Source of the DNA: a virus
DNA: 64,000 nt
Reading direction: 5' to 3' (one strand)
Virus record (IMG/VR): IMGVR_UViG_3300032561_000012
Coordinates: 20,543 to 84,542 of that record
Part shown: one piece after another, positions 11,601-61,138 of the stretch
Numbering within the stretch: the first letter of the stretch is position 1
Layout: each line of letters begins with the position of its first letter
Translations under genes and position numbers: made by a program
The notes under the pieces: model-generated
What the model was told of the DNA's origin: nothing
Seen by the model: only the letters and a program-made list of their open reading frames with translations
Databases searched by the model: none

Positions 11601-14600
11601 TGATCTACAGGGATGACCTGACTTAGGCCAGGGCGAACATAGTGCGGATCAATACCTGCTCTAGCACCTTGTACAATCAACCCAGCTTCTAGGTCATTCC
11701 ATAGTAATGTGTTACCGCCGGTATAAGGTGCAGGACCGTAATAGCTTTCCCACCAAGTAGGCATAGTAGCAAACCCTAGCATTTCCCATGGTGTTAGGTG
11801 TGGGCGTAGTGTGTCGTAGTAGTATTGATAGCAAGCACGCCACGATCCTGGTAGAGCCTCACCAGTAAGTTTATCAGGTTGGCCAGCATAGTTCCAAGTA
11901 AAGCTGTCATTGCTTTCAAATGTACTGTTGGTGCTGAAATCTAATTTATTATTACCAATCCAATTTAAGAAACTATTTGATGCCAGTTGATTGATTTCAG
12001 CCAGGCTATATGCTTCAGGTACACGTCTAAATTTGCCTGGTACCACTGATAAGATATCACCGTAGGTACCTGTATCAGGTAGTTTAATATTGTTGAATAT
12101 ACGTAGTTCTAATTCTAATAAGAACTGATCTCTATAGTCATTGAACACAGGTGTTACACTGCCATCGTGGCCGCGTATAACATCTGTAGGTGTTCTATAG
12201 GTATTGTCATAGAATACTTCTGGTACATATGGTGGCCATAAGCCTAACTTAGTAGGAGTTTCTGGAATATAGTTACCATCAGTGTTGCTGTATTCGTTGA
12301 TGGTAATAATGTCACCAACATTTAATGTTGTTAAGAATGTTATTGCTGGTACTGTTGAACTAAATTCAAAGTCTTGATTATTGACCACTTGCTGACCATT
12401 GACATAGACTAATACTGCTTGATTGCTTAACTGTTGGTCGTTGAATACGTTAGTTAATTGATAGTCAGTGACTAAAGGATCAAATACAGTATAGGTTAAG
12501 GTAGTCTTTAATGGACCATAAGGTACCATGTCACTGTAGTAGAATGGGAATGATTTATTCTTAACAGCATTGATCTTAGTTAAAATTAAATCAACACTGG
12601 CCGCAGGATCTGTAGGAATAATACCTGGTAAACTAACTGCTAGTTCTAAAAATTTATTTTTAAATTTAGTATATTCTTGTTGAGCAAAGCGCAAGGCATT
12701 GATAAAGTTAGCGTTGTCATCTACTAGGAATATTGACAGTGGTGCAGGTGCTGAGTGTTGTAGCAGTGTACCGCCTTGGGCTTTGATATCAATATCACGT
12801 AGGTTACTACTGCCAAGAATATTACCTATAACTGAATTGCTGTTCTGTGCCAGCGCAACTAAATGGTTACGAACCTGTCCTAGGGTCAATGTATTAATAT
12901 CTACGTTCTGTGCATTAACGTCTAGATTCTGTGGTACTTGGTAGAAGCCAAGTTGGCTGACTTGATCACTATAGACTAGAATATCAATTTGGTCACCAGT
13001 GGTCAGTGTTGCAGAAACTGTAACTGCACTATTGGCCAACGCCCATTGACTAGATTGTAAGTACGTGTAATTTTGAAATACTTTTAAGTAAGGTATAGTT
13101 GCAGATGTATTTGGTACTACATCAATAGGGAATGAGCTAGTAGTACCATCATAGGTATAGCTGATCTGTTGATACTGTTTACTGTTTTCTGGAACTGTCT
13201 TCCAGGTATTTTTAGGTTGCAGTGTTTGGCTGTCAACTATAGTTTGTAGATAGCCAAGGTTAATTAGCTCTGTTTGTACTACTCCAGAAGCATCTGAATA
13301 GGTAAATGAGTCTGTGTTAAAGTAATTTTGAAACTCAATATCGCCTTGGGTACTGAAGTTTCTATAGGTCAATGAGAACCCTAGTACAGGATCAACAAAG
13401 CCAGTGGAATTAACTAAATACCCAAATAACCAAGTACCTTTAAATGTACTTCTAGTATAGGTAGAAAAACTCTTGCCACTAACATCTAACACTTCAAATA
13501 GCGGAAATTGATTAACCGCGGTCTTTTGTTGGCTGCTATTCCATTGCACACCATTGTACCACCACTCACTACCTGCGTATTGACCAGTTGCTACTGTGGT
13601 AGTATCATATGGTAATACATCTCCGTCTGCAGCTTTGACTAATTCAATATGATATGGACCTGTAGGTGCTCCATCTAGATCAACTGAATACTGTACTAGT
13701 TTGACCAGATAAATCTTATTCTTAACCAATGGATCTTGATCAGCAGCAAATATCACACGCAGGCCATTGGGGTATATTGGTTTACCGTTAGCGTCTAATA
13801 ATGGTATACCAAATGCAGTTGAATATGTCTGGCCTTGCAGTTGCGTAAATGCATCTGTGGTAGTGGTGTCTAAAATATCAATCGCATCTAGTCCACGGCG
13901 GCCATAGTTAAACAATAATGTATCTGCATCAAATTGAATAATAGGTCGTTGGCCACGAGAATTTTGGTCAAATGATGGTAGTACACCATTGTAGTTTGCT
14001 GTGGCAGTGATAACGTCAACATGGAACCAACGATTGTTACGTGACCAAGCATTACGATCTACACTACTGCGATTAATAGTAATGTAGTCTGGGAACAAGG
14101 TATTAGGATACAATAAAGTATTTTCTTTAATGTAGGCCTCTGGGGTTATCATTTGGTCTACAGGGACTAAACGTATACCACTGTTGTATAATGCTTGATT
14201 ACCAACTTCTTCTACGTAGTATTGATTATTTTGATATTCAGCTGGCGTTACATCTGTGCCAAATTGAATTTTTAATCCTGAAGTAAAATTAACTCCATTT
14301 GGACTAGTATAATTTTGTTGTCCTAGGATGTCAGCATCTACATCAATGGCCCAGTTGTTGTATTCAACAACTTTGATCTTTTCAAAAATATTATAATTTG
14401 TGCCGTCTTGTATCCACAAGGTATCTAGGCCAGCAGTTAACAGCGGCATTGGATAGAATAACCCGTCAAGATCTTTGTAGAATTCTCTGTTGGCATTAAC
14501 TACACCAAATTTAATGTAGACCTTTTGATTCACTGCCACTGCTTGATCAGGAATTAACTGTATTAGTAGGTCATTAGTGCCATCTGCATTTTTAATTCCT

Positions 14601-48244: not shown

Positions 48245-51049
48245 ATGGCAATACAGAACGCATCAGACAGTCAAAAAGTAGACTACCTTTGGAAGAAGAT
48301 AGGGTATGGTGTTGCCAAGACTGATATTTCTGGCAACATTGATGCTACTAATGAACCATACGCAAGCCCATTACTAATTCGTGCTGACACTCTGTGGCAA
48401 CAGTCAGGCAGTATTCCTAACGTTGCTCCAACTAGTAATGTAGGTGTAGTCACTGCTTATCCTACTACATTCCCAATACAGTGTACTAATGACGCAGGTA
48501 TTCCAACACCAAACTTAACTTGGGTAACAGGAGTTACCAATTGGATTCCACCTGAGTTTGGGTCAACATATCAGATCAAAGTCTATATAGCACCAGCAGG
48601 CCAAGCGGCTAATGTGTTAACCAAAGGCACACAGGTATTTGCTACTGGTAGTGGTAATAACGACTTATGGTACTTTGACTATAAAGCAGGTATCTTAAAC
48701 TTTAACAGCAACAACACCCCATACGCAGGCGGTGTTCCTATCAGCTTTACTGGTAATGCTGTTTACATCAGCGGCGGAGTTTACAGCGGCTTAATTGGAT
48801 TACCTAACGGTATTGGTAACCTAACAGTCAGTAACACAACAATCTCAAGTCTTGGTGGTAATATTAGTTTTAACTCAGCTAGCGGATACATTTATGCTGG
48901 CAATGCTATTATTGCTAATATAGCTAATCCTATAAACTCACAAGATGCAGTAACAGTATCAAACTTATTAAGTGCTATTGGTAGTATTTCTTCAATCACA
49001 GGTAATCTAAATGTTACTAATAATTTAACTGTTGGTGGATATGCAAACATCACAGGAAACCTGTCACTGTCTAGCACCAGTGATCTTTTAATCAGCGGTA
49101 ATGCAGGGTTAAATGGACAGTATTTGACATCAACAGGTAATGGTCTACAATGGACAACGGTTAGTTTTAATTCTAGTCAAATTAGTTCTGGTGCAAGTAA
49201 TGTTACTGTAACTGCTAACTATGTTAATGTGGCCATCAACGGTAGTAATGTTGCATCCTTTAGCAGTACTGGGTTTACCACTGGTAATTTAACAATTAGC
49301 AACAGCACACTGTCTTCAGTTGATGGAGCCAATCTAGTACTTAATGCACCTGGGACAGGTATAGTACAGATAGCAGGCAGTGATGCACTAGGTTTACCAT
49401 ATGGTAACATTTATACACGCCCAGGAAATCCAACAATTGGGTATATTCGTTACAACACAGATGCACCTGGATTAGAAGTATGGACAGGTAATGCGTGGCT
49501 TGCACCAGGCACTGCACAAATTTTATCTCAAACAATATTCCCTGATGGTGTTAGCAACGTATTTACATTAAGCAGTAACGCATCTACTACTGGCGTACTA
49601 GTAAGTCTTAATGGTACACTACAACGCCCAGGATATGCCTACACTGTATCTAATAATAGTATTGCATTTAGTGAAGTTCCACTGACCACTGACATAGTTG
49701 AAGTTAGATACATGATCAATGGTCAAACAGTGGTATCAGCTAGTCAACTGCAATACGGTAATACTACCAGTGTTGTCTTGGACGCGACAAATGTCACAGT
49801 TACTTCACAAAATATTAACCAGTCTGGTAACTTGTCAGTTCAAGGTAACATCACCAGCGGCACACTACAAACAGGTGTTACACATATACCAACTAGTGCC
49901 AATGTAATTTATGTAGCTAAAAATGGCAATGACAGTTTTGACGGTACCATTAATGCACCATTCTTAACAATCAAAGCGGCCTTAGCTGCGGCGGCAAACA
50001 TTTCTACATCAGGAGTTAGCGTACACGTTGCTCCTGGAACATATTACGAAAATAATCCAGTGACTATTCCACAAAATGTGTCATTGATGGGCGACAATAT
50101 ACGTAATATCACAGTTATACCAAATACTCCAACAGCTGATTTATTCTATGTAACAAATGGCTGTTATGTTTGGGGTATTACAATTAAAAACTATCTAGCC
50201 AACGGATTCAGTTATAGTTCAGCAACTAGCAGTGCTAATGTTTTTGTTAGTCCTTACATACAAAATATAACATCTAGTACCACAACAGGTACCGCAGTTT
50301 ATGTTGACGGTAACAACACCAGCAGTATCAGTACCAAAGCAATGATTGTAGGTTTCTTTACTATTATCAACCAAGGCGGTGTTGGTGTACGATTAAGCAA
50401 TGGTGCTTATGCACAGTTAGTTAATATCTACACCATTGGCGCTAACGTTGGTATTTGGAGTGATTCAGGTAGCTTCTGTACACTTAACGGTTCTGACAAC
50501 AGTATTGGTAACATTGGTCTACGTGCTGACGGATACGGTACACTACAAAGTTATGGCAACACATCAGGTTATAGTACTTTTGGATCATTTACAATAAAAA
50601 ATCCAACAGCTCAGCCGCATGTTAACACTGTGATGATTATCAATGGTGATCCAGCATACTACAGTATTGATAAAATTAATAAAGTAGATGCTGTGACTTA
50701 TACTATCACAGTACAACAAACATACCTAGGTAATTTGGCACCTAACACTAATATTGCATTTTATAATCGCAGTGAAGTTGTGGCCAGCGCACATACATTT
50801 GAATATGTGGGCGCAGGAACTAACGCAGCCACAGCACTACCACAGTATGGTGGTATACCAAATGCTAACTTAAACGTAGTGACCACAGGTGGCGGCAGTG
50901 TAACATATACAGCCACAGACGAAAAAGGACAATTTTGGATTGGGCCTAATTTAGTTATCAATCAAGCAACAGGCACAATCAGCGGTGCGGCATTTAGTAA
51001 GAGTTTATTTGCATTAATGACACCATACATTTTAGCGTTGGAAATATAA
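48245..51049 (+). CDS. Long tail fibre with parallel beta-helix domain
   Basis: 934 residues. The start has SDSQKVDYLWKKIGYGVAKT, a conserved opening of marine T4-like fibres. A middle module (IYTRPGNPTIGYIRYNTDAP, LEVWTGNAWLAPG, then GVLVSLNGTLQRPGYAYTVS) recurs in other fibres here. From about residue 548, VIYVAKNGNDSFDGTINAPF and ALAAAANISTSGVSVHVAPG, then TYYENNPVTIPQNVSLMGDN start a DUF1565/pectate-lyase-like right-handed beta-helix of about 200 residues, a fold used by fibres and tailspikes that bind or cut polysaccharide. Catalytic residues cannot be named from sequence alone. The C-terminal FWIGPNLVINQATGTISGAA segment is likewise common in fibres. Confidence 0.75.
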   Translation: MAIQNASDSQKVDYLWKKIGYGVAKTDISGNIDATNEPYASPLLIRADTLWQQSGSIPNVAPTSNVGVVTAYPTTFPIQCTNDAGIPTPNLTWVTGVTNWIPPEFGSTYQIKVYIAPAGQAANVLTKGTQVFATGSGNNDLWYFDYKAGILNFNSNNTPYAGGVPISFTGNAVYISGGVYSGLIGLPNGIGNLTVSNTTISSLGGNISFNSASGYIYAGNAIIANIANPINSQDAVTVSNLLSAIGSISSITGNLNVTNNLTVGGYANITGNLSLSSTSDLLISGNAGLNGQYLTSTGNGLQWTTVSFNSSQISSGASNVTVTANYVNVAINGSNVASFSSTGFTTGNLTISNSTLSSVDGANLVLNAPGTGIVQIAGSDALGLPYGNIYTRPGNPTIGYIRYNTDAPGLEVWTGNAWLAPGTAQILSQTIFPDGVSNVFTLSSNASTTGVLVSLNGTLQRPGYAYTVSNNSIAFSEVPLTTDIVEVRYMINGQTVVSASQLQYGNTTSVVLDATNVTVTSQNINQSGNLSVQGNITSGTLQTGVTHIPTSANVIYVAKNGNDSFDGTINAPFLTIKAALAAAANISTSGVSVHVAPGTYYENNPVTIPQNVSLMGDNIRNITVIPNTPTADLFYVTNGCYVWGITIKNYLANGFSYSSATSSANVFVSPYIQNITSSTTTGTAVYVDGNNTSSISTKAMIVGFFTIINQGGVGVRLSNGAYAQLVNIYTIGANVGIWSDSGSFCTLNGSDNSIGNIGLRADGYGTLQSYGNTSGYSTFGSFTIKNPTAQPHVNTVMIINGDPAYYSIDKINKVDAVTYTITVQQTYLGNLAPNTNIAFYNRSEVVASAHTFEYVGAGTNAATALPQYGGIPNANLNVVTTGGGSVTYTATDEKGQFWIGPNLVINQATGTISGAAFSKSLFALMTPYILALEI

Positions 51050-51079
51050 TAAAATAAGTAATTAATAAGGAAATAAAAT

Positions 51080-51412
51080 ATGGCAGCAGCAATTAATAAT
51101 TTTACCACAGTGACAGCTAATCTAACAGCTAACGTAGCTTCAGTTTACAGTACACCTGTTGGATATTCATCTGTGATATTGCTATGTCAAATTAGTAATG
51201 TTAGTAATAATGCTATAGCAACTAGTGGTTATCATTTAAGATCAGGTACTCCTACAGCACTATTACAAAACTATCCAGTACCAGTTAATGACGCGGTGAG
51301 TATGCTAACAGGTAGATTAGTTATGATCTACGGTGACAGTCTGCAATTCAGTGCTAACGTTAACTCTGGCGCACAATTACTATTAAGCGTTTTAGAGACA
51401 AGCACATCATAA
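51080..51412 (+). CDS. Small beta-rich virion protein (110 aa), relative of the 44560 gene
   Basis: 110 residues with a TAAGGAAATAAA ribosome site. MAAAINNFTTVTANLTANVA leads to VYSTPVGYSSVILLCQISNV, then SMLTGRLVMIYGDSLQFSAN and LLLSVLETSTS. The pattern of N-terminal strand, central Val/Leu/Ile strand with a Cys, and GDSLQ strand is shared with the 102-aa protein at 44560-44868, so the two look like distant paralogues. It lies between two long fibre genes and is followed 1 nt later by the next. A fibre-associated structural role is likely. Confidence 0.6.
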   Translation: MAAAINNFTTVTANLTANVASVYSTPVGYSSVILLCQISNVSNNAIATSGYHLRSGTPTALLQNYPVPVNDAVSMLTGRLVMIYGDSLQFSANVNSGAQLLLSVLETSTS

Positions 51413-51413
51413 T

Positions 51414-52418
51414 ATGGCAATAGTTACTACCCATTTAGTCAGCGGTCGTGTTCCGGTAGTTGCACCAACTAGCGTTACACCTGATCGTTATACATATCTA
51501 GGACTTAGTCAAGCAGAGCCTAACCTTGGTTACAGTGGCAATGGTAACGTCTTAACTACAAATATCTATGGACAACGCATTTGGTCTAGCAATATTAATC
51601 TAACTAATATTCAGGTTACTGGAACTATTGTTGCAGGAGCAGTAATAGCTGGCGGTATTAACCAATACGTTAGTAACACTGTACCCGCAACAGCTGCAGT
51701 AGGCGACCAATGGTATGACACTAGCACTGATATTTTATTCCAATATGAAAATACTGGTTCTAGTAATGTTTGGGTAGATGTATCATCAGTGGCACTGAAT
51801 ACCAACGTTGCTACTATTTTAGGCACAACATTAAGTATCACAGGCAACGGCACAATTACCAGCGGATTAACTGTTGGCAGTTTGACTATCAACGGCAGTG
51901 AAACTGCAACAGGTACATTGACTATTAACAGTTCAGGAAACCCAACTGCTATTCTTAACGGTAATGTTTCTGGAGTTGGTAATATTGGCTCAGCGGGTAC
52001 TACATTTAATACTGTGTTTGCTAAAGCCACAACAGCACAGTACGCTGACTTGGCTGAGATATATGCCAGCGACAGTTTATACCCAGCAGGCACAGTGGTC
52101 ATCTTTGGCGGTGTTGCAGAAGTTACCGCAAGTACAACCAATCACGATTCAGCAGTGGCCGGGGTAGTAAGTACAAATCCAGCATACTTAATGAACACAG
52201 CAGCATCAGGTGTAGCAGTAGCACTGCAAGGTCGAGTACATTGTTCTGTGCTAGGCCCAATTAACAAGGGCGACTTAGTGGTTACTAGTGATGTACCTGG
52301 AGTAGCGCAACGACTAGATCCTACGCTATGGAAACCAGGTTGTGTTATAGGTAAGAGTTTAGAAATAATTACTTCAAATCAAATAGCAACTATTGAAGTT
52401 GTGGTAGGGAGAGACTAA
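51414..52418 (+). CDS. Tail-fibre protein (334 aa)
   Basis: 334 residues. A first part has YLGLSQAEPNLGYSGNGN and AVGDQWYDTSTDILFQYENT, a standard fibre module. The C-terminal 140 residues (TFNTVFAKATTAQYADLAEI, YPAGTVVIFGGVAEVTAS, VAVALQGRVHCSVLGPINKG, DLVVTSDVPGVAQRL, GCVIGKSLE) form a domain repeatedly found at the ends of T4-like fibres, where it may act in trimerisation or folding. Its stop overlaps the next ATG (TAATG), coupling it to the S74-domain fibre. Confidence 0.68.
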   Translation: MAIVTTHLVSGRVPVVAPTSVTPDRYTYLGLSQAEPNLGYSGNGNVLTTNIYGQRIWSSNINLTNIQVTGTIVAGAVIAGGINQYVSNTVPATAAVGDQWYDTSTDILFQYENTGSSNVWVDVSSVALNTNVATILGTTLSITGNGTITSGLTVGSLTINGSETATGTLTINSSGNPTAILNGNVSGVGNIGSAGTTFNTVFAKATTAQYADLAEIYASDSLYPAGTVVIFGGVAEVTASTTNHDSAVAGVVSTNPAYLMNTAASGVAVALQGRVHCSVLGPINKGDLVVTSDVPGVAQRLDPTLWKPGCVIGKSLEIITSNQIATIEVVVGRD

Positions 52419-53242
52419 TGGGATTTCCACAGAACCCACTCAATGGTAACATAGCAACTGTAAATGGTATTACCTATACCTACAACAGTACTAAAACTGC
52501 TTGGCTACGAGCTACTACTACAGGCGCTAATCTTACTGCTAATAGCTTAACATTAACATCAAATGCTAGTGCTATATCAAGTTCTTCTGGAGCATTGATA
52601 GTCACAGGTGGCGCGGGTATTGGGGGCAACTTATATGTTGCAGGATCACTATACGGAAATATTACAGGTAACATTAATGGTATCGGTAGTATAAATTCTA
52701 CCACTGCCGCATTTAGTAATTTAATTTCTACATTGGCAACAGTTACAGGTAATATCACAGCAGGCAACATTACAGCAGGTAATGTAACTGCTAGTTATTT
52801 TGCGGGTGCGTTACTTACTGCATCGCAACCACTGCTAACAACATTAGCCAATATACAAATTTATTCGTTGGGTGTAGGCACCCCACCATCGCAAACACAA
52901 GGTGAAATACGTGCTACAAACCAAATTACATCATACTACTCAGACGAACGATTAAAAACACGTTTAGGTAGAATTGAAAACGCTTTAGACAAAGTAGATC
53001 AAATCTCAGGGTTCTATCATGAGGCCAATGACACTGCGGTAGAATTAGGTTTTTCTAAGGTGCGCGAAGTTGGTGTAAGTGCGCAAGAAATACAATCAGT
53101 ACTGCCAGAAGTTGTTACTCTAGCACCATTTGATGAACGCTACCTAACAGTTCGTTACGAAAGATTAACTCCGTTGCTGATTGAAGCAATTAAAGAACTA
53201 CGTCAAGAAGTTAACGCTATTAAAAAACAGCTTGGCGGTTAA
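52418..53242 (+). CDS. Tail-fibre protein with S74 intramolecular chaperone
   Basis: 274 residues. An N-terminal FPQNPLNGNIATVNGITYTY and W module is followed by GALIVTGGAGIGGNLYVAGS, a frequent fibre repeat. The last 100 residues contain YYSDERLKTRLGRIENALDK (Ser175, Lys180), GVSAQEIQSVLPEVV and YLTVRYERLTPLLIEAIKEL, the peptidase S74/endosialidase chaperone domain. This domain trimerises fibres and cuts itself off, using the Ser of SDxRLK. The mature fibre would therefore end near residue 174. It overlaps the preceding gene by one base and is followed 1 nt later by an oxygenase gene. Confidence 0.85.
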   Translation: MGFPQNPLNGNIATVNGITYTYNSTKTAWLRATTTGANLTANSLTLTSNASAISSSSGALIVTGGAGIGGNLYVAGSLYGNITGNINGIGSINSTTAAFSNLISTLATVTGNITAGNITAGNVTASYFAGALLTASQPLLTTLANIQIYSLGVGTPPSQTQGEIRATNQITSYYSDERLKTRLGRIENALDKVDQISGFYHEANDTAVELGFSKVREVGVSAQEIQSVLPEVVTLAPFDERYLTVRYERLTPLLIEAIKELRQEVNAIKKQLGG

Positions 53243-53243
53243 A

Positions 53244-53804
53244 ATGACTTTTGATCAATTCAAAGTCATAGACAACTTCATACCTTTGTCACTACAAGAA
53301 CAAATAAAGTCAACACTACTGGGACCAAAATTTGCTTGGTTCTACACTGTAGATGTGACTTATAACGCAGATGCTCCTATAGATCGTAGAAATCCAGGAT
53401 TTAGCTACTTGTTTAATCAGAATGATAGTATAGCTCCAGACATTGCAACATTGGCCTACACTGGCGCAATGACAGCAGGAGTGCAATATACAAATATCCT
53501 GCAGGCACGAGCATTCTTGCAACTGCCGCTAAGTGATAGATTTTTAACCGCAGGTGTTGATCCTTTACATGTTGACACTCAAACTCCACATTTAGTGGTG
53601 TTGTATTACGTTGTAGATTCAGATGGCGATACTCTACTAACTAACAGCACTCACAGTGATAGCTTACAGGTCGAAGATCATACTATCATAGCACGAGTTA
53701 GTCCTAAACAAGGCAGGGCACTGTTATTTGATGGCGGCTTGTATCACACAGCAGAACAACCAAAAGACAATGTTCGCTGTGTTATTAACCTGGACCTAGC
53801 TTAA
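53244..53804 (+). CDS. 2OG-Fe(II) oxygenase-like protein
   Basis: 186 residues from ATG 53244; in-frame upstream codons lie inside the S74 gene and are not used. The iron triad of a 2-oxoglutarate dioxygenase is visible: H109 and D111 in DPLHVDTQTPHLVVLYYV, and H168 in LFDGGLYHTAEQP, with R178 in NVRCVINLDL as the likely 2OG-binding Arg. The proline-hydroxylase/PKHD-like layout suggests hydroxylation of a protein side chain. It ends at the late promoter of the Asn-Cys cassette and is cotranscribed with the fibre genes, so fibre proteins or the cassette products are plausible substrates. The substrate is unproven. Confidence 0.78.
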   Translation: MTFDQFKVIDNFIPLSLQEQIKSTLLGPKFAWFYTVDVTYNADAPIDRRNPGFSYLFNQNDSIAPDIATLAYTGAMTAGVQYTNILQARAFLQLPLSDRFLTAGVDPLHVDTQTPHLVVLYYVVDSDGDTLLTNSTHSDSLQVEDHTIIARVSPKQGRALLFDGGLYHTAEQPKDNVRCVINLDLA

Positions 53805-53812
53805 AATAAATA
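53805..53812 (+). promoter_or_regulatory. Possible late promoter (AATAAATA) of the Asn-Cys cassette
   Basis: AATAAATA immediately after the oxygenase stop and 15 nt before ATG 53828, followed by a TAGGAGA ribosome site. Confidence 0.55.
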
Positions 53813-53827
53813 AGGTAGGAGACTGAA

Positions 53828-54115
53828 ATGGCAACAACATTAGGCAATGGAATAGTAACATTTGGAGATGGCACTCGTTTGGGGTCAAACGTCATTCCTT
53901 ACGGTAATATTACCAACCCTAAAACTAACCTTACACAGTTTACTAACGATTTAGGTAACTATGGTAATTTTCTTACAGCTAACTCAATTAATACTACTCA
54001 GATTAATACAGGCGCATGGGCTAGTATGTATCTTACTTTGACTAACTGTGGAAGTAGTACTACATTGGGGTTAGCTACAGATAACTGTAATTGTAATTGT
54101 GCATGTAACTGTTAG
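53828..54115 (+). CDS. Asn-Cys-tailed small protein 1 (candidate modified peptide precursor)
   Basis: 95 residues in two parts. Residues 1-55 (TTLGNGIVTFGDGTRLGS, then NLTQFTNDLGNYGNFL) match a module of T4-like fibre proteins. The C-terminus is NCNCNCACNC, reached after LTNCGSSTTLGLATD. The tail is written as alternating AAY and TGT codons plus one GCA. Such a conserved front with a short repetitive Cys tail, next to a radical SAM/SPASM gene, resembles the leader and core of a RiPP precursor, but the leader here looks structural. Good TAGGAGA site; 9 nt to the next paralogue. Confidence 0.72.
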   Translation: MATTLGNGIVTFGDGTRLGSNVIPYGNITNPKTNLTQFTNDLGNYGNFLTANSINTTQINTGAWASMYLTLTNCGSSTTLGLATDNCNCNCACNC

Positions 54116-54124
54116 GAATAAGTA

Positions 54125-54403
54125 ATGTCAACAACGTTAGGAAATGGTGTAGTAACTTTTGGAGATGGAACTAGTTTGCGCAGTTCACAGATTCAACTGG
54201 CCAATGTCAGCGGAGCGCCAACTAATCTTAGTGGGTTTACTAACAATTTAGGTAACTATGGTAATTTTATAGATGCTACAATAATTAACACAGCCAGCAG
54301 TGGATATTATAGTGCAAGTGAATATGGTCCTAAATTTTTAAATTGGAACGGTAATACTCTGCAGATAACAGCTAGTAACTGTAATTGTAATTGTAATTGT
54401 TAG
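54125..54403 (+). CDS. Asn-Cys-tailed small protein 2
   Basis: 92 residues, a paralogue of the previous gene: TTLGNGVVTFGDGTSLRSSQ, NLSGFTNNLGNYGNFIDA, a divergent middle (GYYSASEYGPKFLNWNGNTL) and the tail SNCNCNCNC. No other Cys occurs in the protein, so all four Cys are in the repeat. The first 35 nt of the conserved TFGDGT block are identical at DNA level to the third paralogue, implying recent duplication or conversion. Separated by 9 and 8 nt from its neighbours, with weak ribosome sites (AGGAATA). Confidence 0.72.
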   Translation: MSTTLGNGVVTFGDGTSLRSSQIQLANVSGAPTNLSGFTNNLGNYGNFIDATIINTASSGYYSASEYGPKFLNWNGNTLQITASNCNCNCNC

Positions 54404-54464
54404 GATAATATATGTCAGACATACTAGGCAATGGTGTAGTAACTTTTGGAGATGGAACTAGTTT
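54143..54464 (+). repeat. 35-nt perfect direct repeat in paralogues 2 and 3
   Basis: Copies at 54143-54177 and 54430-54464 are identical and encode the NGVVTFGDGTSL block. The flanking sequence diverges, which fits tandem duplication followed by drift or selection. Confidence 0.85.
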
Positions 54465-54759
54465 AAGTAGTGCTGTCATTCCTTGGACTAATTTTACCAG
54501 TCGCCCAACACAGTTAAGTCAGTTTACCAATGATTTAGGCAACTATGGCGCTTTCTTGACCACTACCGCTAATGTTTTCACTGGTGACAGTGGGTACGGT
54601 GCAGGCAATGAATTTGACAATCCCAACGGTACTGTTAATGCCTGCGGTAGTGGACGCGGGGGTATTGGTCACTTAACCAGCGGAGTATGGAGTCTGACAT
54701 GGAATGGTACCTATCCGGGGCTAGCTGTTTATAACTGTAATTGTGCCTGTAACTGTTAA
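54412..54759 (+). CDS. Asn-Cys-tailed small protein 3
   Basis: 115 residues. MSDILGNGVVTFGDGTSLSS, then PTQLSQFTNDLGNYGAFL shows the same front domain as the two genes before it. The middle differs (GDSGYGAGNEFDNPNGTV, a single NACGSG Cys, VWSLTWNGTYPGLAVY) and the tail is NCNCACNC. The middle could be a separate beta domain that carries the tail. It is followed by 50 nt without a clear terminator and then the 254-aa gene. The tails of all three paralogues end exactly with NC and the stop codon, so the repeat is terminal in each. Confidence 0.72.
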   Translation: MSDILGNGVVTFGDGTSLSSAVIPWTNFTSRPTQLSQFTNDLGNYGAFLTTTANVFTGDSGYGAGNEFDNPNGTVNACGSGRGGIGHLTSGVWSLTWNGTYPGLAVYNCNCACNC

Positions 54760-54809
54760 AAAATAGTTGCACCTTAACATTAAGATATATATATTAAAGG
54801 ACTTGTAGT

Positions 54810-55574
54810 ATGGATTTTTATGCATTAACCACAAATAGAATATTACCAACTAATGATATTAGTATTGTTGGCGATACACTAACTATTAATATTTCTGATG
54901 TAACTATGGCCAATAGTTTTGGTAATACCAGTACATCAGATAGTTTTAGTTTGTCTAATTTGATTAGTAACTATGCTGTAGATCACGGTTGTATTGCTAT
55001 AATTCCTCAAGGCATGCAGGCCAATGCTAGAATGATGACCATAGAAACAACCCAACTCAGCCTAGTAGAAAAGGCTGCACCAGGTAGCAGCTACACATCA
55101 TATCAAACCACTGAAGGCAAACACTATGCTGGTAGTCCTTACAGCGTTATTGACAGTCGTTATCGTTCATACGGATATGTGTATATTCTAACACCAAGAA
55201 TTAACTGTACAGTAGATGAATGTTCAGTGATCTATAGAGACTCAAACGCTAATGTAACTGTTAATGGTAGTCAAATAACCCCAACAGCCTCAATAACTTC
55301 AACACATGCTTTCTTAGCCAATTGGATGCCCATTACTATCAGTGGCGGCTCTACAATTACAGCAGGCGATACTGCTACATATACCGTATCAGGTACAGCT
55401 AATACAACAATCTATGTCAGCGCAGACATTGGCACAGTTAATCGTGGGCGAGTAGCAGAAGGCGGGAGTTTTCAATTAAACACAGCAGGACTCGAAGCTG
55501 GTGAAACTGTGACAATCAAAGTAGGCTACAAAACTTGGAGTGGAGTAGCAACTAAGGTGGTAACTCTTGAATAA
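54810..55574 (+). CDS. Beta-rich protein of the Asn-Cys cassette, function unknown
   Basis: 254 residues with an AAAGGAC site. MDFYALTTNRILPTNDISIV and GDTLTINISDVTMANSF suggest a virion-type beta protein. The middle has GCIAIIPQGMQANARMMTIE and RYRSYGYVYILTPRINCTVD. The C-terminal 80 residues (GGSTITAGDTATYTVSGTAN, GGSFQLNTAGLEAGETVTIK, then VGYKTWSGVATKVV) look like an Ig-like domain. I do not recognise the family. It lies between the tailed proteins and the oxygenase/radical SAM pair, and its stop overlaps the oxygenase start by 8 nt. It may carry, or be bound by, the modified proteins. Confidence 0.65.
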   Translation: MDFYALTTNRILPTNDISIVGDTLTINISDVTMANSFGNTSTSDSFSLSNLISNYAVDHGCIAIIPQGMQANARMMTIETTQLSLVEKAAPGSSYTSYQTTEGKHYAGSPYSVIDSRYRSYGYVYILTPRINCTVDECSVIYRDSNANVTVNGSQITPTASITSTHAFLANWMPITISGGSTITAGDTATYTVSGTANTTIYVSADIGTVNRGRVAEGGSFQLNTAGLEAGETVTIKVGYKTWSGVATKVVTLE

Positions 55575-56205
55575 CATAGTTTCACTATGGCCAACTAATG
55601 TTCTTTATGAGCAACAGGCTGTTGAAGCTACACAAGATTTTTTGTCTGAAATCTTAGCCATTGGCGAAGAATACGAACTACAACACCCAGAAGCCCACGT
55701 GCCTGTGGCTATGCGCAAAAACAAAGAAAATGTCTACAACTTACTCGCAGATCCTCGTCCAGCCTGTCAACTATTTAAACAGATGCTAAAGTCGCGTATG
55801 CTAGACCTAGCGGGCGTAGAAGGATTTTTAAACACTGTAGAATTTGAAGCTGTTACTAGCCTGCGCAAGTTTGCTCCAGGTGATTATGCTAAACCACACA
55901 ATCACCGTAGTGTGGACTATGTGGCAGTGTTGTGGTTAGCATTAGAAGACACAGATCCGCCAAGCAATAACACACATCAACGCATGACAGGTAATCGTTT
56001 TCATATGATTGATCCAATGCCCTCACGCAGCAGATTTTTAAATCACACTATGTTATTCCCTGTGAGTCCCCGTCCTGGTACCTTTCTAATACACCCAGCA
56101 TCAACATTTCATACTACAGAAGCCAACCTAGGCTCAGTGGATACCATAGCATTGGCTACTAATATCAAAGTTATAGACCCAGCCAGGAACTACGTTACTT
56201 TATAA
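55567..56205 (+). CDS. Putative 2OG-Fe(II) oxygenase
   Basis: 212 residues starting at TTG 55567, with AAGGTGG upstream inside the preceding gene. The opening SLWPTNVLYEQQAV is typical of the phage oxygenase type that starts with a (F/W)PTxV strand. Metal-ligand candidates are H111 and H113 in AKPHNHRSVDYVAVLWLALE and H182 in RPGTFLIHPASTFHTTEAN. The 2OG-binding Arg normally near the last strand is not obvious (VDTIALATNIKV), so activity or cosubstrate could differ. It ends by overlapping the radical SAM ATG by one base, which argues that the two act on the same product. Confidence 0.62.
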   Translation: MNNIVSLWPTNVLYEQQAVEATQDFLSEILAIGEEYELQHPEAHVPVAMRKNKENVYNLLADPRPACQLFKQMLKSRMLDLAGVEGFLNTVEFEAVTSLRKFAPGDYAKPHNHRSVDYVAVLWLALEDTDPPSNNTHQRMTGNRFHMIDPMPSRSRFLNHTMLFPVSPRPGTFLIHPASTFHTTEANLGSVDTIALATNIKVIDPARNYVTL

Positions 56206-57566
56206 TGGCTAAATTTACTATCCGTGCAGTAAAACCTATTACTAACGAAGAATACACATTTGTGTATGATAATCTAACATCTGAAATATTTGACAGCACT
56301 GGCACTAGATTAGAGTTTAAATCAACAGAAACAATCAACTACGGTACAGTTTTTGCTACTAGTCAATCAACCCCAGCTGGTAAATCACATGATATTACCT
56401 CACTTAAAATACAACTAGGATTGAGTTGCAATTACGAATGTGTATATTGTAGCCAACGGTTCGTGCCTAAGGCAGATGAAACCAACAAAGATGATGTCGG
56501 CCCATTCTTAGCTGAATTGCCTACATGGTTCAATGGTGGTGATGGTACAGGAATTAAAGTTGAATTTTGGGGAGGTGAGCCATTTGTCTATTGGAAAACA
56601 CTTAAACCCTTGGCAGAAGGCATACGTAATTTATACCCAAACATTAAATTTGGCATAGTAACCAATGGTACTCTATTAGATCTAGAAAAGAATCAATGGC
56701 TAGATGATCTAGGATTTAGTGTAGGTATTAGCCACGACGGCCCTGGATACCATGCTCGCGGATTAGATCCGTTTGATAATCCAGAACAGTTTGCTATGAT
56801 CATGGACTTGTGGAATAGATTAAATCCTAGTCGCCGCATAAGTTTCAATGCAATGGTTCATAAAAATAATTCAAGTAGAGCGGCGATTGTTGATTGGTTT
56901 AAAGATCGCCTGGGAGTTGAAGTACCAATGGGCGAAGGTGCTTTTATTGATCCCTATGACGAGGGTGGTGCTAGTCTATGTATGACAGACCCAGCAGAAC
57001 ATGTTGCTTATAGAGTCAATAGTTTTAAAGAATTACGTAACAACCAAGGTACAAATTTGGATGTAGTACGTAGAAGAATCAGTGATTTTATTCGAAGTAT
57101 AGTAACACAACGCCCAGGCACAGCACTAGGGCAAAAATGCGGCATGGATAAACCTGATCAACTAGCAGTAGACTTAACAGGTAATGTGCTGACCTGTCAA
57201 AATGTGTCAGCAGTGGCCACAAGCTTCAATGGTGCTAGTCACCAAATTGGACACGTTAAAGATTTTGACAATATCAAACTCAAATCATCAACACATTGGA
57301 GTCACAGAGCTGAATGCCCTAACTGCCCGGTACTACAGATCTGTCAAGGTAGTTGTATGTTCCTAGAAGGTGACATGTGGAACCTAGCCTGTGACAATGC
57401 CTACAGTGATAATATTCCTTTCTTTATGGCCGCCTGGGAAATACTCACAGGCACAATTCCCTACTATATCGATGGGCCACAAGCAGAAGCACGCAAAGAC
57501 ATTATTGGTACTGTTAACGGAATCCCCGCTAAAAGAACTAAAATAATCCCTATAATCGCTGAATAA
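56205..57566 (+). CDS. Radical SAM/SPASM peptide- or protein-modifying enzyme
   Basis: 453 residues. The SAM cluster motif is CNYECVYC (C75, C79, C82), and WGGEP lies at 122-126. The C-terminal SPASM domain is complete in Cys spacing: C312-x13-G-x4-C331, then CPNCPVLQICQGSC (C371, C374, C380, C384; CX2CX5CX3C) and C396. This arrangement matches sulfatase-maturase-type and peptide-maturase enzymes that carry two auxiliary clusters and act on Cys, Ser or other residues in peptides. An N-terminal region of about 65 residues precedes the barrel and could bind substrate. With three Cys-repeat proteins just upstream, those tails are the obvious candidate substrates. Start ATG overlaps the oxygenase stop (TAATG). 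The reaction is unknown. Confidence 0.88.
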   Translation: MAKFTIRAVKPITNEEYTFVYDNLTSEIFDSTGTRLEFKSTETINYGTVFATSQSTPAGKSHDITSLKIQLGLSCNYECVYCSQRFVPKADETNKDDVGPFLAELPTWFNGGDGTGIKVEFWGGEPFVYWKTLKPLAEGIRNLYPNIKFGIVTNGTLLDLEKNQWLDDLGFSVGISHDGPGYHARGLDPFDNPEQFAMIMDLWNRLNPSRRISFNAMVHKNNSSRAAIVDWFKDRLGVEVPMGEGAFIDPYDEGGASLCMTDPAEHVAYRVNSFKELRNNQGTNLDVVRRRISDFIRSIVTQRPGTALGQKCGMDKPDQLAVDLTGNVLTCQNVSAVATSFNGASHQIGHVKDFDNIKLKSSTHWSHRAECPNCPVLQICQGSCMFLEGDMWNLACDNAYSDNIPFFMAAWEILTGTIPYYIDGPQAEARKDIIGTVNGIPAKRTKIIPIIAE

Positions 57567-57582: not shown

Positions 57583-57590
57583 CATAAATA
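57583..57590 (+). promoter_or_regulatory. Late promoter (CATAAATA) for the 1152-aa fibre gene
   Basis: CATAAATA, 89 nt before ATG 57680 and 16 nt after the radical SAM stop. Confidence 0.6.
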
Positions 57591-57679: not shown

Positions 57680-60600
57680 ATGGCAAATCTAACCAGAATT
57701 CTTAATAATCAGATTACTAATAGTACCATTATTGCTAGTCAGAAAATTGCAGCAGGTACTATTGTAGGTAGTCTGTTTGCTAGTAACGTTACAGTCCCAG
57801 GTGACTTGTTGATTACAGGTAACTTGTTTGTCTTAGGTAACAGTGTACAAACAACTATTGCATCAACTAACACCTACGTTAATGATCCCCTACTTACTCT
57901 AAACAACGGTTTTACTGGTACTAACACCTATGATGAAGGGTTAATATTTAACCGCGGATCTAGTACTAACCAAGCATTTATTTGGAGTGAAACCTATAAA
58001 GAATTCCGTGTGGTTAGCACAACAGAAACTGGTACTACCTACGGTAATATCAATGCTACTGGTCTAGCAAACTTATCAGTCGGCAGTTTTGTTGCTACTG
58101 GTATTGGTAATATTTCTACACTTTATTCAGCAACTGCTACAATCTTAAATGCATATCATACAACATTAAATGTAACTGGTAACGTATTGCTTGGGCTAAC
58201 ACAGGCTGCGGCTATCAATGCTACACCAATTGGTAACATAACACAAGCTTCAGGTCAATTTACGACCTTATCAGCAACAGCAAGTTTCTATGCAAATGCT
58301 GGTACACCAAGCACATCGACATCAACAGGAGCCGCAGTAGTAATTGGCGGGGTAGGGGTTGCAGGTAACATCTACGCTAACAGCATTTATCTAAGTGCTG
58401 GTTCTGTATCTTCAGGTGTATATGCTGGCGCATACACAGATGGTATTGTATTAGATTACCAAACAGGCATGGGTCGTATTAGTGTTGGCTCTAATGACGG
58501 TATTACACTATATAATAACACAGACACAACCAGAGTTGCACTAGTAACAGTTGGGTCTAACGGTAACCTAACAGCAATATCTATCAATGCTACACCAATC
58601 GGTAATGTAACACCAAGCACAGGTGTATTTACAGTATTAAGTGCTAATCAAAACTTATGGGCTAACGCAAGTATAGCAACTACCGCACAAGGTATTGGCG
58701 CAGTTGTAGTACCAAACGGGGGTATTAGTGTTGCAGGCGCAGCAAACATTGCTCTAGGTACAACAATTGGTGGTGCAACACAAATTAACAACACATTAGG
58801 TGTTGGTGGCGTAACTTCAATTACTAATACCACAAATGCGACCGGAGCATCAACTGGTGCATTACAAGTAGCAGGCGGCGCTAGTTTCTCACAAGATGTA
58901 TGGATTGGTGGCAACTTATTTGTTAGCAATATTATAGGGGTTCAAGCTAACATTATTACAGTAACAGACCCGTTACTATACCTAAGAAATTCTAATGTAA
59001 GTGTATACAATTATGATATTGGTTTCTACAGTGCGTTTACTGGCACAGGTCTAGGTACAATTAATCAATATCAACACACCGCTGTTTTCCGTAATCCTTT
59101 AAATAACACATGGAATTTTGTAAGTAACCTTGCAGAACCTAGTGCAAGTTACATTACTATTGACAGTACTACTGTCTACGATCCAATTAAAGCTGGTAAC
59201 TTGCAATTAACAGTTACTACAGACAGTATAAATGCAACTACTGGTGCGCTGATTGTAGCTGGTGGTGCTGGTATTGGTGGTAACATATTCCAGACTGGTG
59301 CATACCATGATTCAAGTTCTAGCAACTTTATCCATATGCCAACGCCAACTACGGCTAACAACTTTGCAAGTGCTACAACAATATTCTATGGTGCACCTAC
59401 TGGCGACTTTGTTATTCGTAACCAAAATATCAGTACAGTACAAACAGGCACAGTAAACCTACTCAATGCCAATGTTACAACACTAAACTTTGCTGGAGCC
59501 GCAACCACAATCAGCGTAGGCGCTGCAACAGGTACAACAACATTTAACTCAGCTACCAATGGCGCTACTTATAGAGCAGGTGCTGTGGTAATCAGTGGTG
59601 GTGTTGGTGTAAACGGTAACTTAAATTTATCTAGAAGTAATTACATAACACTCGGTGCTGACCTAAACAGTAATATTGTTTATCCAGAAAACTCAGTACA
59701 GGTAACAACAACTTCTAACGCAAGTTCTAGAATCAGTATTCAAAATACTAATACAGGACTGTTAGCAACTAGTGAATTTAATGTAATATCTAGCAATGGT
59801 TCTAACACGTCAGCTTACATGTCAGTTGGTATCACTGGTCAAAATTACCAATCAGCCTCTGCACCAATACTTAAACCTCAAGACGGGTATACATACACTT
59901 CAACTGGTAATTTAATATTAGCTAGTGCGAAAGACATATTAATGTCTGCAGGCGGATTAACGGCTATTGACATTATTGTTAGCAATGCAAACGGTAATGT
60001 TGGTGTACAAAATTCAACAGCGGCAACATCGAGTACTACCGGTGCATTAACATCGGTTGGTGGTATTAGTACACAGGCTAACTTATACACAGGCACAGGG
60101 GCAACAATCAATACTAATAATGGTATTGAAGGATTTACTGTTAAGAGCAGTAAATCAGGTAACGTGGCTATATTTGCTAACGTTGCCACACAAAATGGTG
60201 CCGCAACAGAATCAGTGATTATTGGTGGCGGCAACTTAGCTGTACAACCTGGGGTACTATTAAAAGTCAGTGGCGTAACATCAATGATGGTACCGGTTGG
60301 TCCTACATCAGCACGCCCAAGTAGCATATTAGGTGCAGGATATGATGCACAGGGTATGATACGTTTTAATACTACTAGCACCTTGTTAGAGTATTATGAT
60401 GGTACACAATGGCAGGCTGCAGGTAGTGCGTTTACTGTTATTAGCGATCGCCAATTCCAAGGTAATGTACCGGCAGGCTACGGTAACGTTGACGGCACTA
60501 ACACAACATTTACTATCCAAAGTAATTCAACCACAGCAGGTACACTGGTAAGCATCAACGGTGTGATGCAGTTCCCAGTACTGGCCTACAGTGTTAGTGG

Positions 60601-61138
60601 TACAACACTGACATTTACAGAACCGCCAGCACCAACAGATATTATTGACGTTCGTGTGTTGACAACAACTACATCGGTTACTACTATTTCTAGTGCCAAT
60701 GGTCTGAATCAATTAATTGCTGACACCACAGGTGTGAGCTTATGGTCTGGTACTAGTGCAACTACGGAACGTATATTAGTTGACCCAGTGGGCAATTTTA
60801 ACATCTTAACTGGTAGTAAAATTACCTACACACAAACACCAACTAATATACCAACTACAGCTACTCCTGTACTAATTGACAGTTGGAGTCAAACAGCTTA
60901 TACTAGTGCAACATATGAAGCACAAGCTAAAGTTGGCTCAACTAATATGGAAGTCTATAATGTTAAAGCATTAACAGATGGTGCTGGTAATGCGTTTGTG
61001 TCGGTGTACGGAGTAATCAATAACGGTACAACATTTGGTACATTTAGTGCCAACGTTGGTGGCGGTAATGTAAATGTCTACTACACATCATCAATAGCAC
61101 AGGCCAATGTTAAAGCATTTGGTACTTACATAGTATAA
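57680..61138 (+). CDS. Long tail fibre (1152 aa)
   Basis: 1152 residues. The N-terminus (ANLTRILNNQITNSTIIASQ, KIAAGTIVGSLFASNVTVPG) is followed by LLITGNLFVLGNSVQTTIAS and an NDPLLTLNNGFTGTNTYDEG module. A second copy-like module (GGNLFVSNIIGVQANIITVT, DPLLYLRNSNVSVYNYDIGF) lies near residue 415. The phrase STGALxVxGGxxxxxNxxxG occurs at least five times, marking shaft repeats. Near residue 890 comes GYDAQGMIRFNTTSTLLEYY with DGTQWQA, then GTLVSINGVMQFPVLAYSVS, modules shared with the 44873 and 48245 genes. A C-terminal QAKVGSTNMEVYNVKALTDG module ends it. Its own late promoter lies upstream. Likely a major fibre. Confidence 0.74.
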   Translation: MANLTRILNNQITNSTIIASQKIAAGTIVGSLFASNVTVPGDLLITGNLFVLGNSVQTTIASTNTYVNDPLLTLNNGFTGTNTYDEGLIFNRGSSTNQAFIWSETYKEFRVVSTTETGTTYGNINATGLANLSVGSFVATGIGNISTLYSATATILNAYHTTLNVTGNVLLGLTQAAAINATPIGNITQASGQFTTLSATASFYANAGTPSTSTSTGAAVVIGGVGVAGNIYANSIYLSAGSVSSGVYAGAYTDGIVLDYQTGMGRISVGSNDGITLYNNTDTTRVALVTVGSNGNLTAISINATPIGNVTPSTGVFTVLSANQNLWANASIATTAQGIGAVVVPNGGISVAGAANIALGTTIGGATQINNTLGVGGVTSITNTTNATGASTGALQVAGGASFSQDVWIGGNLFVSNIIGVQANIITVTDPLLYLRNSNVSVYNYDIGFYSAFTGTGLGTINQYQHTAVFRNPLNNTWNFVSNLAEPSASYITIDSTTVYDPIKAGNLQLTVTTDSINATTGALIVAGGAGIGGNIFQTGAYHDSSSSNFIHMPTPTTANNFASATTIFYGAPTGDFVIRNQNISTVQTGTVNLLNANVTTLNFAGAATTISVGAATGTTTFNSATNGATYRAGAVVISGGVGVNGNLNLSRSNYITLGADLNSNIVYPENSVQVTTTSNASSRISIQNTNTGLLATSEFNVISSNGSNTSAYMSVGITGQNYQSASAPILKPQDGYTYTSTGNLILASAKDILMSAGGLTAIDIIVSNANGNVGVQNSTAATSSTTGALTSVGGISTQANLYTGTGATINTNNGIEGFTVKSSKSGNVAIFANVATQNGAATESVIIGGGNLAVQPGVLLKVSGVTSMMVPVGPTSARPSSILGAGYDAQGMIRFNTTSTLLEYYDGTQWQAAGSAFTVISDRQFQGNVPAGYGNVDGTNTTFTIQSNSTTAGTLVSINGVMQFPVLAYSVSGTTLTFTEPPAPTDIIDVRVLTTTTSVTTISSANGLNQLIADTTGVSLWSGTSATTERILVDPVGNFNILTGSKITYTQTPTNIPTTATPVLIDSWSQTAYTSATYEAQAKVGSTNMEVYNVKALTDGAGNAFVSVYGVINNGTTFGTFSANVGGGNVNVYYTSSIAQANVKAFGTYIV

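What the first reader, a model, noticed from the sequence alone, without database searches (positions are those of the whole stretch)
53244..57566. RiPP-like cassette whose apparent substrates are virion-type proteins with Asn-Cys tails
Seen: three tandem small genes end in NCNCNCACNC, NCNCNCNC and NCNCACNC. Their front halves share a fibre-type module (TFGDGT... and FTN(D/N)LGNYG). A beta-rich protein, an oxygenase-like protein (HNH and distal His) and a complete radical SAM/SPASM enzyme (CX3CX2C, GGEP, CX2CX5CX3C) follow, with overlapping starts and stops for the last three. A second oxygenase lies directly upstream, and a late-type promoter precedes the tailed genes. Known: SPASM enzymes often install thioether or C-C bonds in Cys-containing peptides, and 2OG oxygenases hydroxylate Asn, Asp or Pro. 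Inference: the Asn-Cys tails are modified late in infection, perhaps to make a cross-linked or metal-binding fibre tip. I know of no described phage system like this.
Basis: partly seen in the sequence, partly recalled or inferred. Interest (0 to 1): 0.92.

Follow-up and report, generated by a model that had tools for sequence, protein, structure and literature searches.

The report
Phage enzyme modifies tail-fibre tips
Many phages of freshwater, soil and marine proteobacteria carry a radical enzyme next to tail-fibre proteins that end in a repeated asparagine-cysteine tail, so the virus probably remodels the tip of its own fibre with chemistry known so far mainly from bacterial peptide natural products.

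Summary
Three small genes end in NCNCNCACNC, NCNCNCNC and NCNCACNC. A late promoter motif precedes them. A beta-rich protein, a 2OG-oxygenase-like protein and a complete radical SAM/SPASM enzyme follow in one unit.

The enzyme belongs to phrog_1802. I collected 162 non-redundant loci (T4-like phages, lambda-like phages, prophages). Of the 138 with at least 4 kb upstream, 123 carry an (NC)n protein nearby; most of the rest are contig ends, filter artefacts or chromosomal relatives. The carriers are unrelated tail-fibre tips of 70 to 1082 aa.

Reverse test: 33 of 38 proteins ending in (NC)3 have the enzyme downstream, against 0 of 35 control loci. Cysteines elsewhere in the tips are also preceded by Asn (94 of 119; about 8% expected). 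Some carriers have a Hint (intein-like) domain right after the tail.

The SPASM domain lacks the anSME cysteine that closes AuxI, as in the thioether synthase CteB. So the likely mechanism is thioether cross-linking at Asn-Cys units of fibre tips. The substrate is strongly supported; the chemistry is inferred. The oxygenase is optional (89 of 162 loci), and the oxygenase upstream of the promoter is not a core part. I found no paper on such a system.

The parts
53806..53812 (+). T4-type late promoter motif ATAAATA, start of the late unit
   Evidence: 13 copies in the window (24 expected by chance); this one lies 16 bases before the first tailed gene
53828..54115 (+). tailed small fibre-tip protein 1 (95 aa), ends NCNCNCACNC; proposed substrate
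   Evidence: relatives in L005-L014
54083..54112 (+). codons of the (NC)n tail of protein 1
54125..54403 (+). tailed small fibre-tip protein 2 (92 aa), ends NCNCNCNC; proposed substrate
54377..54400 (+). codons of the (NC)n tail of protein 2
54412..54759 (+). tailed small fibre-tip protein 3 (115 aa), ends NCNCACNC; proposed substrate
54733..54756 (+). codons of the (NC)n tail of protein 3
54810..55574 (+). beta-rich companion protein (254 aa, Ig-like C-terminal part), uncharacterised; proposed chaperone or scaffold
   Evidence: HMM hit in 122 of 162 rSAM loci; fold seen only in uncharacterised phage proteins, best TM 0.83
55567..56205 (+). 2OG-Fe(II)-oxygenase-like protein, optional accessory
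   Evidence: PF13759 E 5.9e-6, phrog_81 E 2.9e-13; family in 87 of 162 loci
56205..57566 (+). radical SAM/SPASM maturase (453 aa, phrog_1802 family)
   Evidence: phrog_1802 E 6.8e-63; TIGR04085; AlphaFold2 pLDDT 95
56427..56450 (+). radical SAM core motif CX3CX2C (C75, C79, C82)
   Evidence: invariant in 68 of 68 relatives
57138..57392 (+). SPASM cysteines C312, C331, C371, C374, C380, C384, C396; the anSME C261 counterpart is missing
57584..57590 (+). next late promoter motif, marks the end of the unit
53244..53804 (+). upstream 2OG-oxygenase-like protein (phrog_274); judged not a core part
   Evidence: homologs only in loci L004/L190, L106, L107, L129, L177 and the window's own

Best explanation
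This is a phage-encoded post-translational modification system for tail-fibre tips. Late in infection the phage makes fibre-tip proteins whose distal domain is studded with Asn-Cys units and ends in an (NC)n ladder. The radical SAM/SPASM enzyme made from the same unit acts on these units. Most likely it binds a substrate Cys at the open site of auxiliary cluster I, removes a hydrogen from a neighbouring residue (usually Asn, sometimes Ala or Asp) and joins the Cys sulfur to that carbon, giving thioether rings along the tip. The result would be a rigid, protease-resistant and redox-stable receptor-binding tip. The beta-rich protein (replaced in some phages by an unrelated 240-aa protein) probably presents or chaperones the tip; 2OG oxygenases are optional extra decorators. 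In phages with a Hint domain after the tail, self-cleavage would expose (NC)n as the C-terminus. Shown by sequence: parts, late unit, association, motif enrichment, cluster ligands. Inferred: that the enzyme modifies the tips (my estimate about 0.9), thioether as product (about 0.55), role in adsorption or stability (about 0.5).
For: (1) Association both ways: 123 of 138 rSAM loci with at least 4 kb upstream have an (NC)n carrier; 33 of 38 non-redundant (NC)3-terminal proteins with at least 4.5 kb downstream have the rSAM on the same strand, against 0 of 35 loci where the DNA pattern is not a protein end; 21 of 21 complete NC-tailed carriers of one fibre family have it. (2) Carriers are unrelated bodies, many matching tail-fibre families, next to central tail fibre J in many siphophages. 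(3) Asn-Cys is the unit: 414 of 591 interior Cys follow Asn, all of them within 150 aa of the tail; one carrier per rSAM group gives 94 of 119; companion proteins show 2-6%. (4) Homologous cyanophage fibres with no rSAM hit lack NC. (5) Hint domains start directly after (or within 3 residues of) the tail in JWF, 2-1, B. paludis MSh1, L238, L273, L276, L277, L074 and L321. (6) Closest folds are peptide/protein maturases anSME, ChlB, CteB; chromosomal relatives sit beside YcaO, a RiPP enzyme. (7) Three Cys ligands for AuxI, as in CteB, where PMC8326336 describes an open site that can bind a substrate Cys. (8) One late unit.
Against: No direct chemical evidence exists. Ala precedes Cys in 15% of tail units, which fits alpha-thioether better than the beta-thioether of NxxC peptides. 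D315 is invariant and could be a fourth cluster ligand. The predicted structure has no N-terminal RRE, unlike CteB and SkfB. A few (NC)3-ended proteins in other phages have no such enzyme in the stretch held. Virion location of the carriers is inferred from homology. The cyanophage comparison covers one fibre family.
Confidence: 0.62

Rival explanations
1. The enzyme acts on the Asn-Cys tips but does other chemistry: epimerisation, C-C or C-O cross-link, or oxidation of Cys to formylglycine as in anaerobic sulfatase maturation.
For: anSME is the top structural match and one of the best sequence matches; JWF's enzyme is annotated as a sulfatase maturase; an alternating sequence suits alternating epimerisation as in polytheonamide (own knowledge).
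Against: The cysteine closing AuxI in anSME is missing in 67 of 68 relatives; the anSME CXPXR target motif is absent from the tails; NCBIfam scores lie far below the cut-offs (43.9 against 349). Cys is the fixed residue, the preceding one varies.
Confidence: 0.2
2. The tails are metal ligands: Cys at every second residue lines the inside of a trimeric needle, like the His-X-His iron sites of the T4 gp37 tip, and the rSAM enzyme only assists or adds a minor change.
For: Alternation would put all Cys on one face of a strand; T4 tips bind seven irons through HxH (PMC11705849); some tips are both His-rich and NC-rich (HLDTNHHFDPHHHHNNCTNCNCNC).
Against: Metal sites need no radical enzyme and would not require Asn before Cys; isolated NC pairs through the tip domain do not fit a needle of CXC sites.
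Confidence: 0.12
3. The rSAM and its companions modify something else (a host peptide or another virion protein); the tailed proteins merely travel in the same module and form disulfides.
For: Virion cysteines can form disulfides (a disulfide network is reported for phage Milano, PMC10811340, seen); no direct test of substrate here.
Against: Unrelated fibre bodies share only the NC tip and the enzyme; both-way association and Asn-Cys bias; cyanophage fibres of the same body lack NC.
Confidence: 0.06
4. The 2OG oxygenases are the main enzymes, hydroxylating Asn in the tails; the rSAM is secondary.
For: An oxygenase often sits directly upstream of the rSAM gene.
Against: Oxygenase found in only 89 of 162 loci; lineages mostly without it keep Asn-Cys; rSAM and tails are the constant pair.
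Confidence: 0.03

Closest known systems
Ranthipeptide / sactipeptide rSAM-SPASM maturases (PapB, CteB, NxxcB, RumMC)
   Same: rSAM/SPASM enzyme beside a Cys-rich substrate; three-Cys AuxI as in CteB; PapB is the best-scoring NCBIfam model; overlapping NxxC units occur inside (NC)n
   Different: Substrate is a tail-fibre protein of 70 to over 1000 aa modified at its C-terminal tip, with no leader peptide seen and no RRE in the predicted structure; scores far below family cut-offs; phage-borne
QhpD (quinohemoprotein amine dehydrogenase maturase)
   Same: SPASM enzyme that cross-links a protein subunit rather than a secreted peptide, by Cys to Asp/Glu thioethers (PMC8326336)
   Different: Different substrate, not phage; TIGR03906 38 bits against a cut-off of 453
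Anaerobic sulfatase maturase (anSME)
   Same: Top structural match of the model; modifies Cys in a protein
   Different: Lacks the fourth AuxI cysteine; no CXPXR target; far below the family cut-off
T4 gp37 long-tail-fibre tip (HxH iron needle)
   Same: Alternating residues at the distal fibre tip
   Different: No modifying enzyme and His instead of Cys
Phage fibres with C-terminal processing domains (peptidase S74 chaperones)
   Same: C-terminal domain removed after assembly; here a Hint domain in some loci
   Different: Hint (intein-like) autoprocessing placed directly after an (NC)n tail; I know of no description

Membership tests
Radical SAM / SPASM superfamily | CX3CX2C cluster motif and GGEP in the core | tested here: met
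   C75, C79, C82 and GGE invariant in 68 relatives; PF04055 29.8 bits, cut-off 29.5
Radical SAM / SPASM superfamily | seven-Cys SPASM domain | tested here: met
   seven invariant Cys; TIGR04085 34.3 bits, cut-off 27
PapB ranthipeptide maturase (NF047865) | score above the curated cut-off | tested here: not met
   59.6 bits against 340
SCIFF maturase (TIGR03974) | score above the curated cut-off | tested here: not met
   29.8 bits against 425
Thioether synthases (CteB, SkfB type) | auxiliary cluster with only three Cys ligands (open site) | tested here: inconclusive
   anSME C261 counterpart absent; 67 of 68 have no extra Cys between C312 and C331; a non-Cys ligand such as D315 is not excluded
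Thioether synthases (CteB, SkfB type) | forms a Cys thioether | not testable with these tools
   needs mass spectrometry or NMR
RiPP biosynthesis | N-terminal RRE (winged helix) on the maturase (common, not universal) | tested here: not met
   the AlphaFold2 model has a small beta N-terminus, no helix before residue 95
RiPP biosynthesis | short precursor with leader, released as a small peptide | tested here: not met
   carriers are fibre proteins up to 1082 aa; no peptidase or exporter among the recurrent neighbours
Anaerobic sulfatase maturase (TIGR03942) | eight-Cys SPASM, score above cut-off, CXPXR substrate | tested here: not met
   seven Cys, 43.9 bits against 349.45, no CXPXR in the tails
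phrog_1802 | profile match over most of the protein | tested here: met
   E 6.8e-63; Achromobacter phage JWF protein is a member
Hint domain (PF05203) in carriers of other loci | profile match above cut-off, starting at a Cys | tested here: met
   JWF carrier 47.5 bits, cut-off 32.1, starting at residue 308 directly after NCNCDCNCNCS; the other carriers scanned are below the cut-off

The most novel reading that the evidence does not exclude
Phages of several unrelated lineages convert the tips of their tail fibres into RiPP-like, radical-made multi-ring (perhaps metal-binding) peptides that serve as the receptor ligand itself, for example by mimicking a metallophore to dock on TonB-dependent receptors. 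This would be a new class of virion modification, with the fibre as the precursor protein and Hint autocleavage as the leader-release step turned around.
Probability: 0.15. Interest if true: 0.97.

Novelty: new variant of a known kind. Interest (0 to 1): 0.9.

Why it matters
If right, a widespread set of phages and prophages uses radical SAM chemistry, known mainly from peptide natural products and a few enzymes, to build a virion part that touches the host. That would change how receptor-binding tips are modelled (standard structure prediction would miss the product), give a large new set of rSAM substrates with a readable code (Asn-Cys), explain an orphan phage family (phrog_1802) and offer a way to cross-link protein needles. 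Cultured phages (Achromobacter phages JWF and 2-1) make it directly testable.

Tried and rejected
Chance or DNA repeat expansion: rejected, because identical tails have many codings and the pattern outside protein ends never comes with the enzyme (0 of 35). The upstream oxygenase as part of the unit: rejected (before the promoter, few homologs). Asn as oxygenase target as the reason for its conservation: unlikely. A strict NxxC register (Asn three before each Cys): composition by position shows no clear register; the second-last position is often Ala, Gln, Arg or Asp, so left open. Fold search of the beta-rich protein against PDB: only weak Ig-like matches, no functional lead. PHROGs on the beta-rich family: nothing. 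Small tailed proteins in the phage collection: no match. Paper searches found no phage rSAM virion system; the library lacks most subscription journals. Burkholderia jumbo phage S13 has rSAM and 2OG genes, but I did not check whether they belong to this family.
Full report
WHAT IS THERE. The window is part of an 84.5-kb virus record of a T4-like phage: portal phrog_213, major head protein phrog_138 and an SbcCD pair, and a tail sheath stabiliser. The finding lies in a fibre region: tail-fibre genes and a peptidase-S74 protein upstream (48245-53242) and a further long, repetitive protein downstream (57680-61138, no PHROG match). Three small ORFs end in NCNCNCACNC, NCNCNCNC and NCNCACNC. They are followed by a beta-rich protein, a 2OG-oxygenase-like protein and an rSAM/SPASM protein; the last three genes overlap. 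ATAAATA, the T4-type late promoter core, occurs 13 times in the window (24 expected), once 16 bases before the first tailed gene and next at 57584, after the rSAM gene. So 53828-57566 looks like one late unit, and the oxygenase at 53244-53804 is outside it.

ASSOCIATION. A scan of viral contigs with the rSAM protein gave 76 loci, and nearly all had a gene ending in (NC)n nearby. A scan of bacterial genomes with an alignment of 19 family members gave 80 more, many of them prophages of Limnohabitans, Burkholderia, Polynucleobacter, Magnetospirillum, Bradyrhizobium and Rhodobacteraceae. Of 162 loci non-redundant at 95% identity (42 groups at 60%), 138 have at least 4 kb upstream and 123 of those carry an (NC)n protein. 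The 15 others include contig-edge cases, tails my filter missed (L050 NCRCNC; L272 and L278 YCSYCSYCTCACSDCSC) and relatives in non-phage settings (L252, L259, L274, L279-L281); L074, with less than 4 kb upstream, has a Cys-rich tail before a Hint domain. The reverse test used a DNA pattern for (NC)3-stop: of 65 non-redundant (NC)3-terminal proteins, 38 have at least 4.5 kb downstream and 33 of these have the rSAM on the same strand. In 35 loci where the pattern is not a protein end there are none (Fisher p about 1e-15). The five exceptions include proteins of different families without rSAM in the stretch held (L135, L141, L146, L180) and L179, a carrier that also appears in the rSAM-based list.

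CARRIERS. The carriers range from 70-aa proteins to a 1082-aa fibre. Many match tail-fibre families, and in many siphophages they follow the central tail fibre J. Tails have 3 to 10 repeats; the residue before Cys is Asn 67%, Ala 15%, Asp 9%. The tail is at the C-terminus or within 6 residues of it in most, or is followed by a Hint domain starting with CF(P/V). The Hint cases are JWF, 2-1, Burkholderia paludis MSh1, L238, L273, L276, L277, L074 and L321; Pfam PF05203 is above cut-off in JWF. Self-cleavage at that Cys would leave (NC)n as the end of the fibre (inference from Hint chemistry).

THE MOTIF IS ASN-CYS, NOT ONLY THE TAIL. Upstream of the tail, 414 of 591 Cys follow an Asn (8% expected), and all 414 lie within 150 residues of the tail. 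The beta-rich, oxygenase and J-type proteins of the same loci show 2-6%. With one carrier per 60% group the count is 94 of 119, and 25 of 27 groups have at least half. Lineages mostly without oxygenase show it too (group 4: 77/90; group 5: 41/68; group 1: 32/41). A fibre body shared over about 770 residues with cyanophages S-CAM1 and S-CAM3 (41-43% identity) ends there without any NC in those phages, which gave no rSAM hit; the rSAM phages add a roughly 120-residue NC tip.

COMPANIONS. HMM searches find the beta-rich family in 122 of 162 loci and an unrelated 240-aa protein (as in JWF) in 17, never both, which suggests one replaces the other. Oxygenases of either type occur in 89 of 162, so they are optional. 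The beta-rich model is confident (pLDDT 92.6) and matches only uncharacterised phage proteins.

THE ENZYME. Ten Cys are invariant in 68 relatives. The alignment to anSME (4k36) places C312 and C331 on its C255 and C276 and leaves its C261 without a counterpart; CteB (5wgg) shows the same two-Cys pattern (anSME residue numbers and ligand assignment from own knowledge of that structure). Only one of 68 has another Cys in between. PMC8326336 states that CteB and SkfB have a cluster with open coordination that can bind the substrate, while anSME, SuiB and PqqE clusters are fully ligated. This favours thioether chemistry, with the caveat of the invariant D315. The model (pLDDT 95) has no N-terminal RRE and its best structural matches are anSME, ChlB and CteB at TM about 0.5. 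Chromosomal relatives in Ramlibacter, Variovorax and a gammaproteobacterial MAG sit beside YcaO proteins, a RiPP setting.

MECHANISM AND RIVALS. The best reading is modification of fibre tips by thioether formation at Asn-Cys units. Precedents are NxxcA (Cys23-Asn20, beta-carbon), freyrasin (six Cys-Asp) and QhpD on a protein subunit (PMC8326336). Ala as the preceding residue in 15% leaves alpha-thioether possible. Metal binding as in the HxH iron needle of T4 gp37 (PMC11705849) is a rival that may coexist. I rate 'the enzyme acts on these tips' near 0.9 and thioether near 0.55.

NOVELTY. No paper in the searched library describes it, and NCBIfam has no matching equivalog. The enzyme class is known; its use on virion fibre tips appears undescribed.

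Noticed in passing
L095 1835-2389, L141 2672-3226, L154 2777-3349, L135 4896-5450, L098, L127, L146, L162, L180: Proteins of other families ending in NCNCNC in phages with no such rSAM in the stretch held; one is a 202-aa structural-looking protein. Function of these tails unknown.
   Followed up: partly
L279, L280, L281: Chromosomal relatives of the rSAM beside a YcaO protein (with a nitroreductase domain in L279 and L280): a possible undescribed RiPP cluster type in Ramlibacter, Variovorax and a gammaproteobacterial MAG.
   Followed up: partly
L061 749-4015; L272 and L278 around 7100-10600: Two rSAM genes in tandem next to the tailed fibre and the beta-rich gene; in L272 and L278 the tail is YCSYCSYCTCACSDCSC, without Asn.
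   Followed up: no
L080 8231-8953 and relatives: A 240-aa protein takes the place of the beta-rich protein; the two were never found in the same locus.
   Followed up: partly
window 53244-53804 and L202 7231-7815: phrog_274, labelled DNA endonuclease V, matches 2OG-oxygenase-like proteins; the label looks wrong.
   Followed up: partly
window, both strands: ATAAATA is rarer than expected (13 against 24) and most copies lie just upstream of genes on the same strand: T4-type late promoters.
   Followed up: partly
window 2648-15658, minus strand: A 4336-aa ORF with an FG-GAP repeat match, unusually large for this phage.
   Followed up: no
L209, L220, L255: rSAM contigs binned as Akkermansia muciniphila or Klebsiella pneumoniae MAGs; probably misbinned phage contigs.
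   Followed up: no
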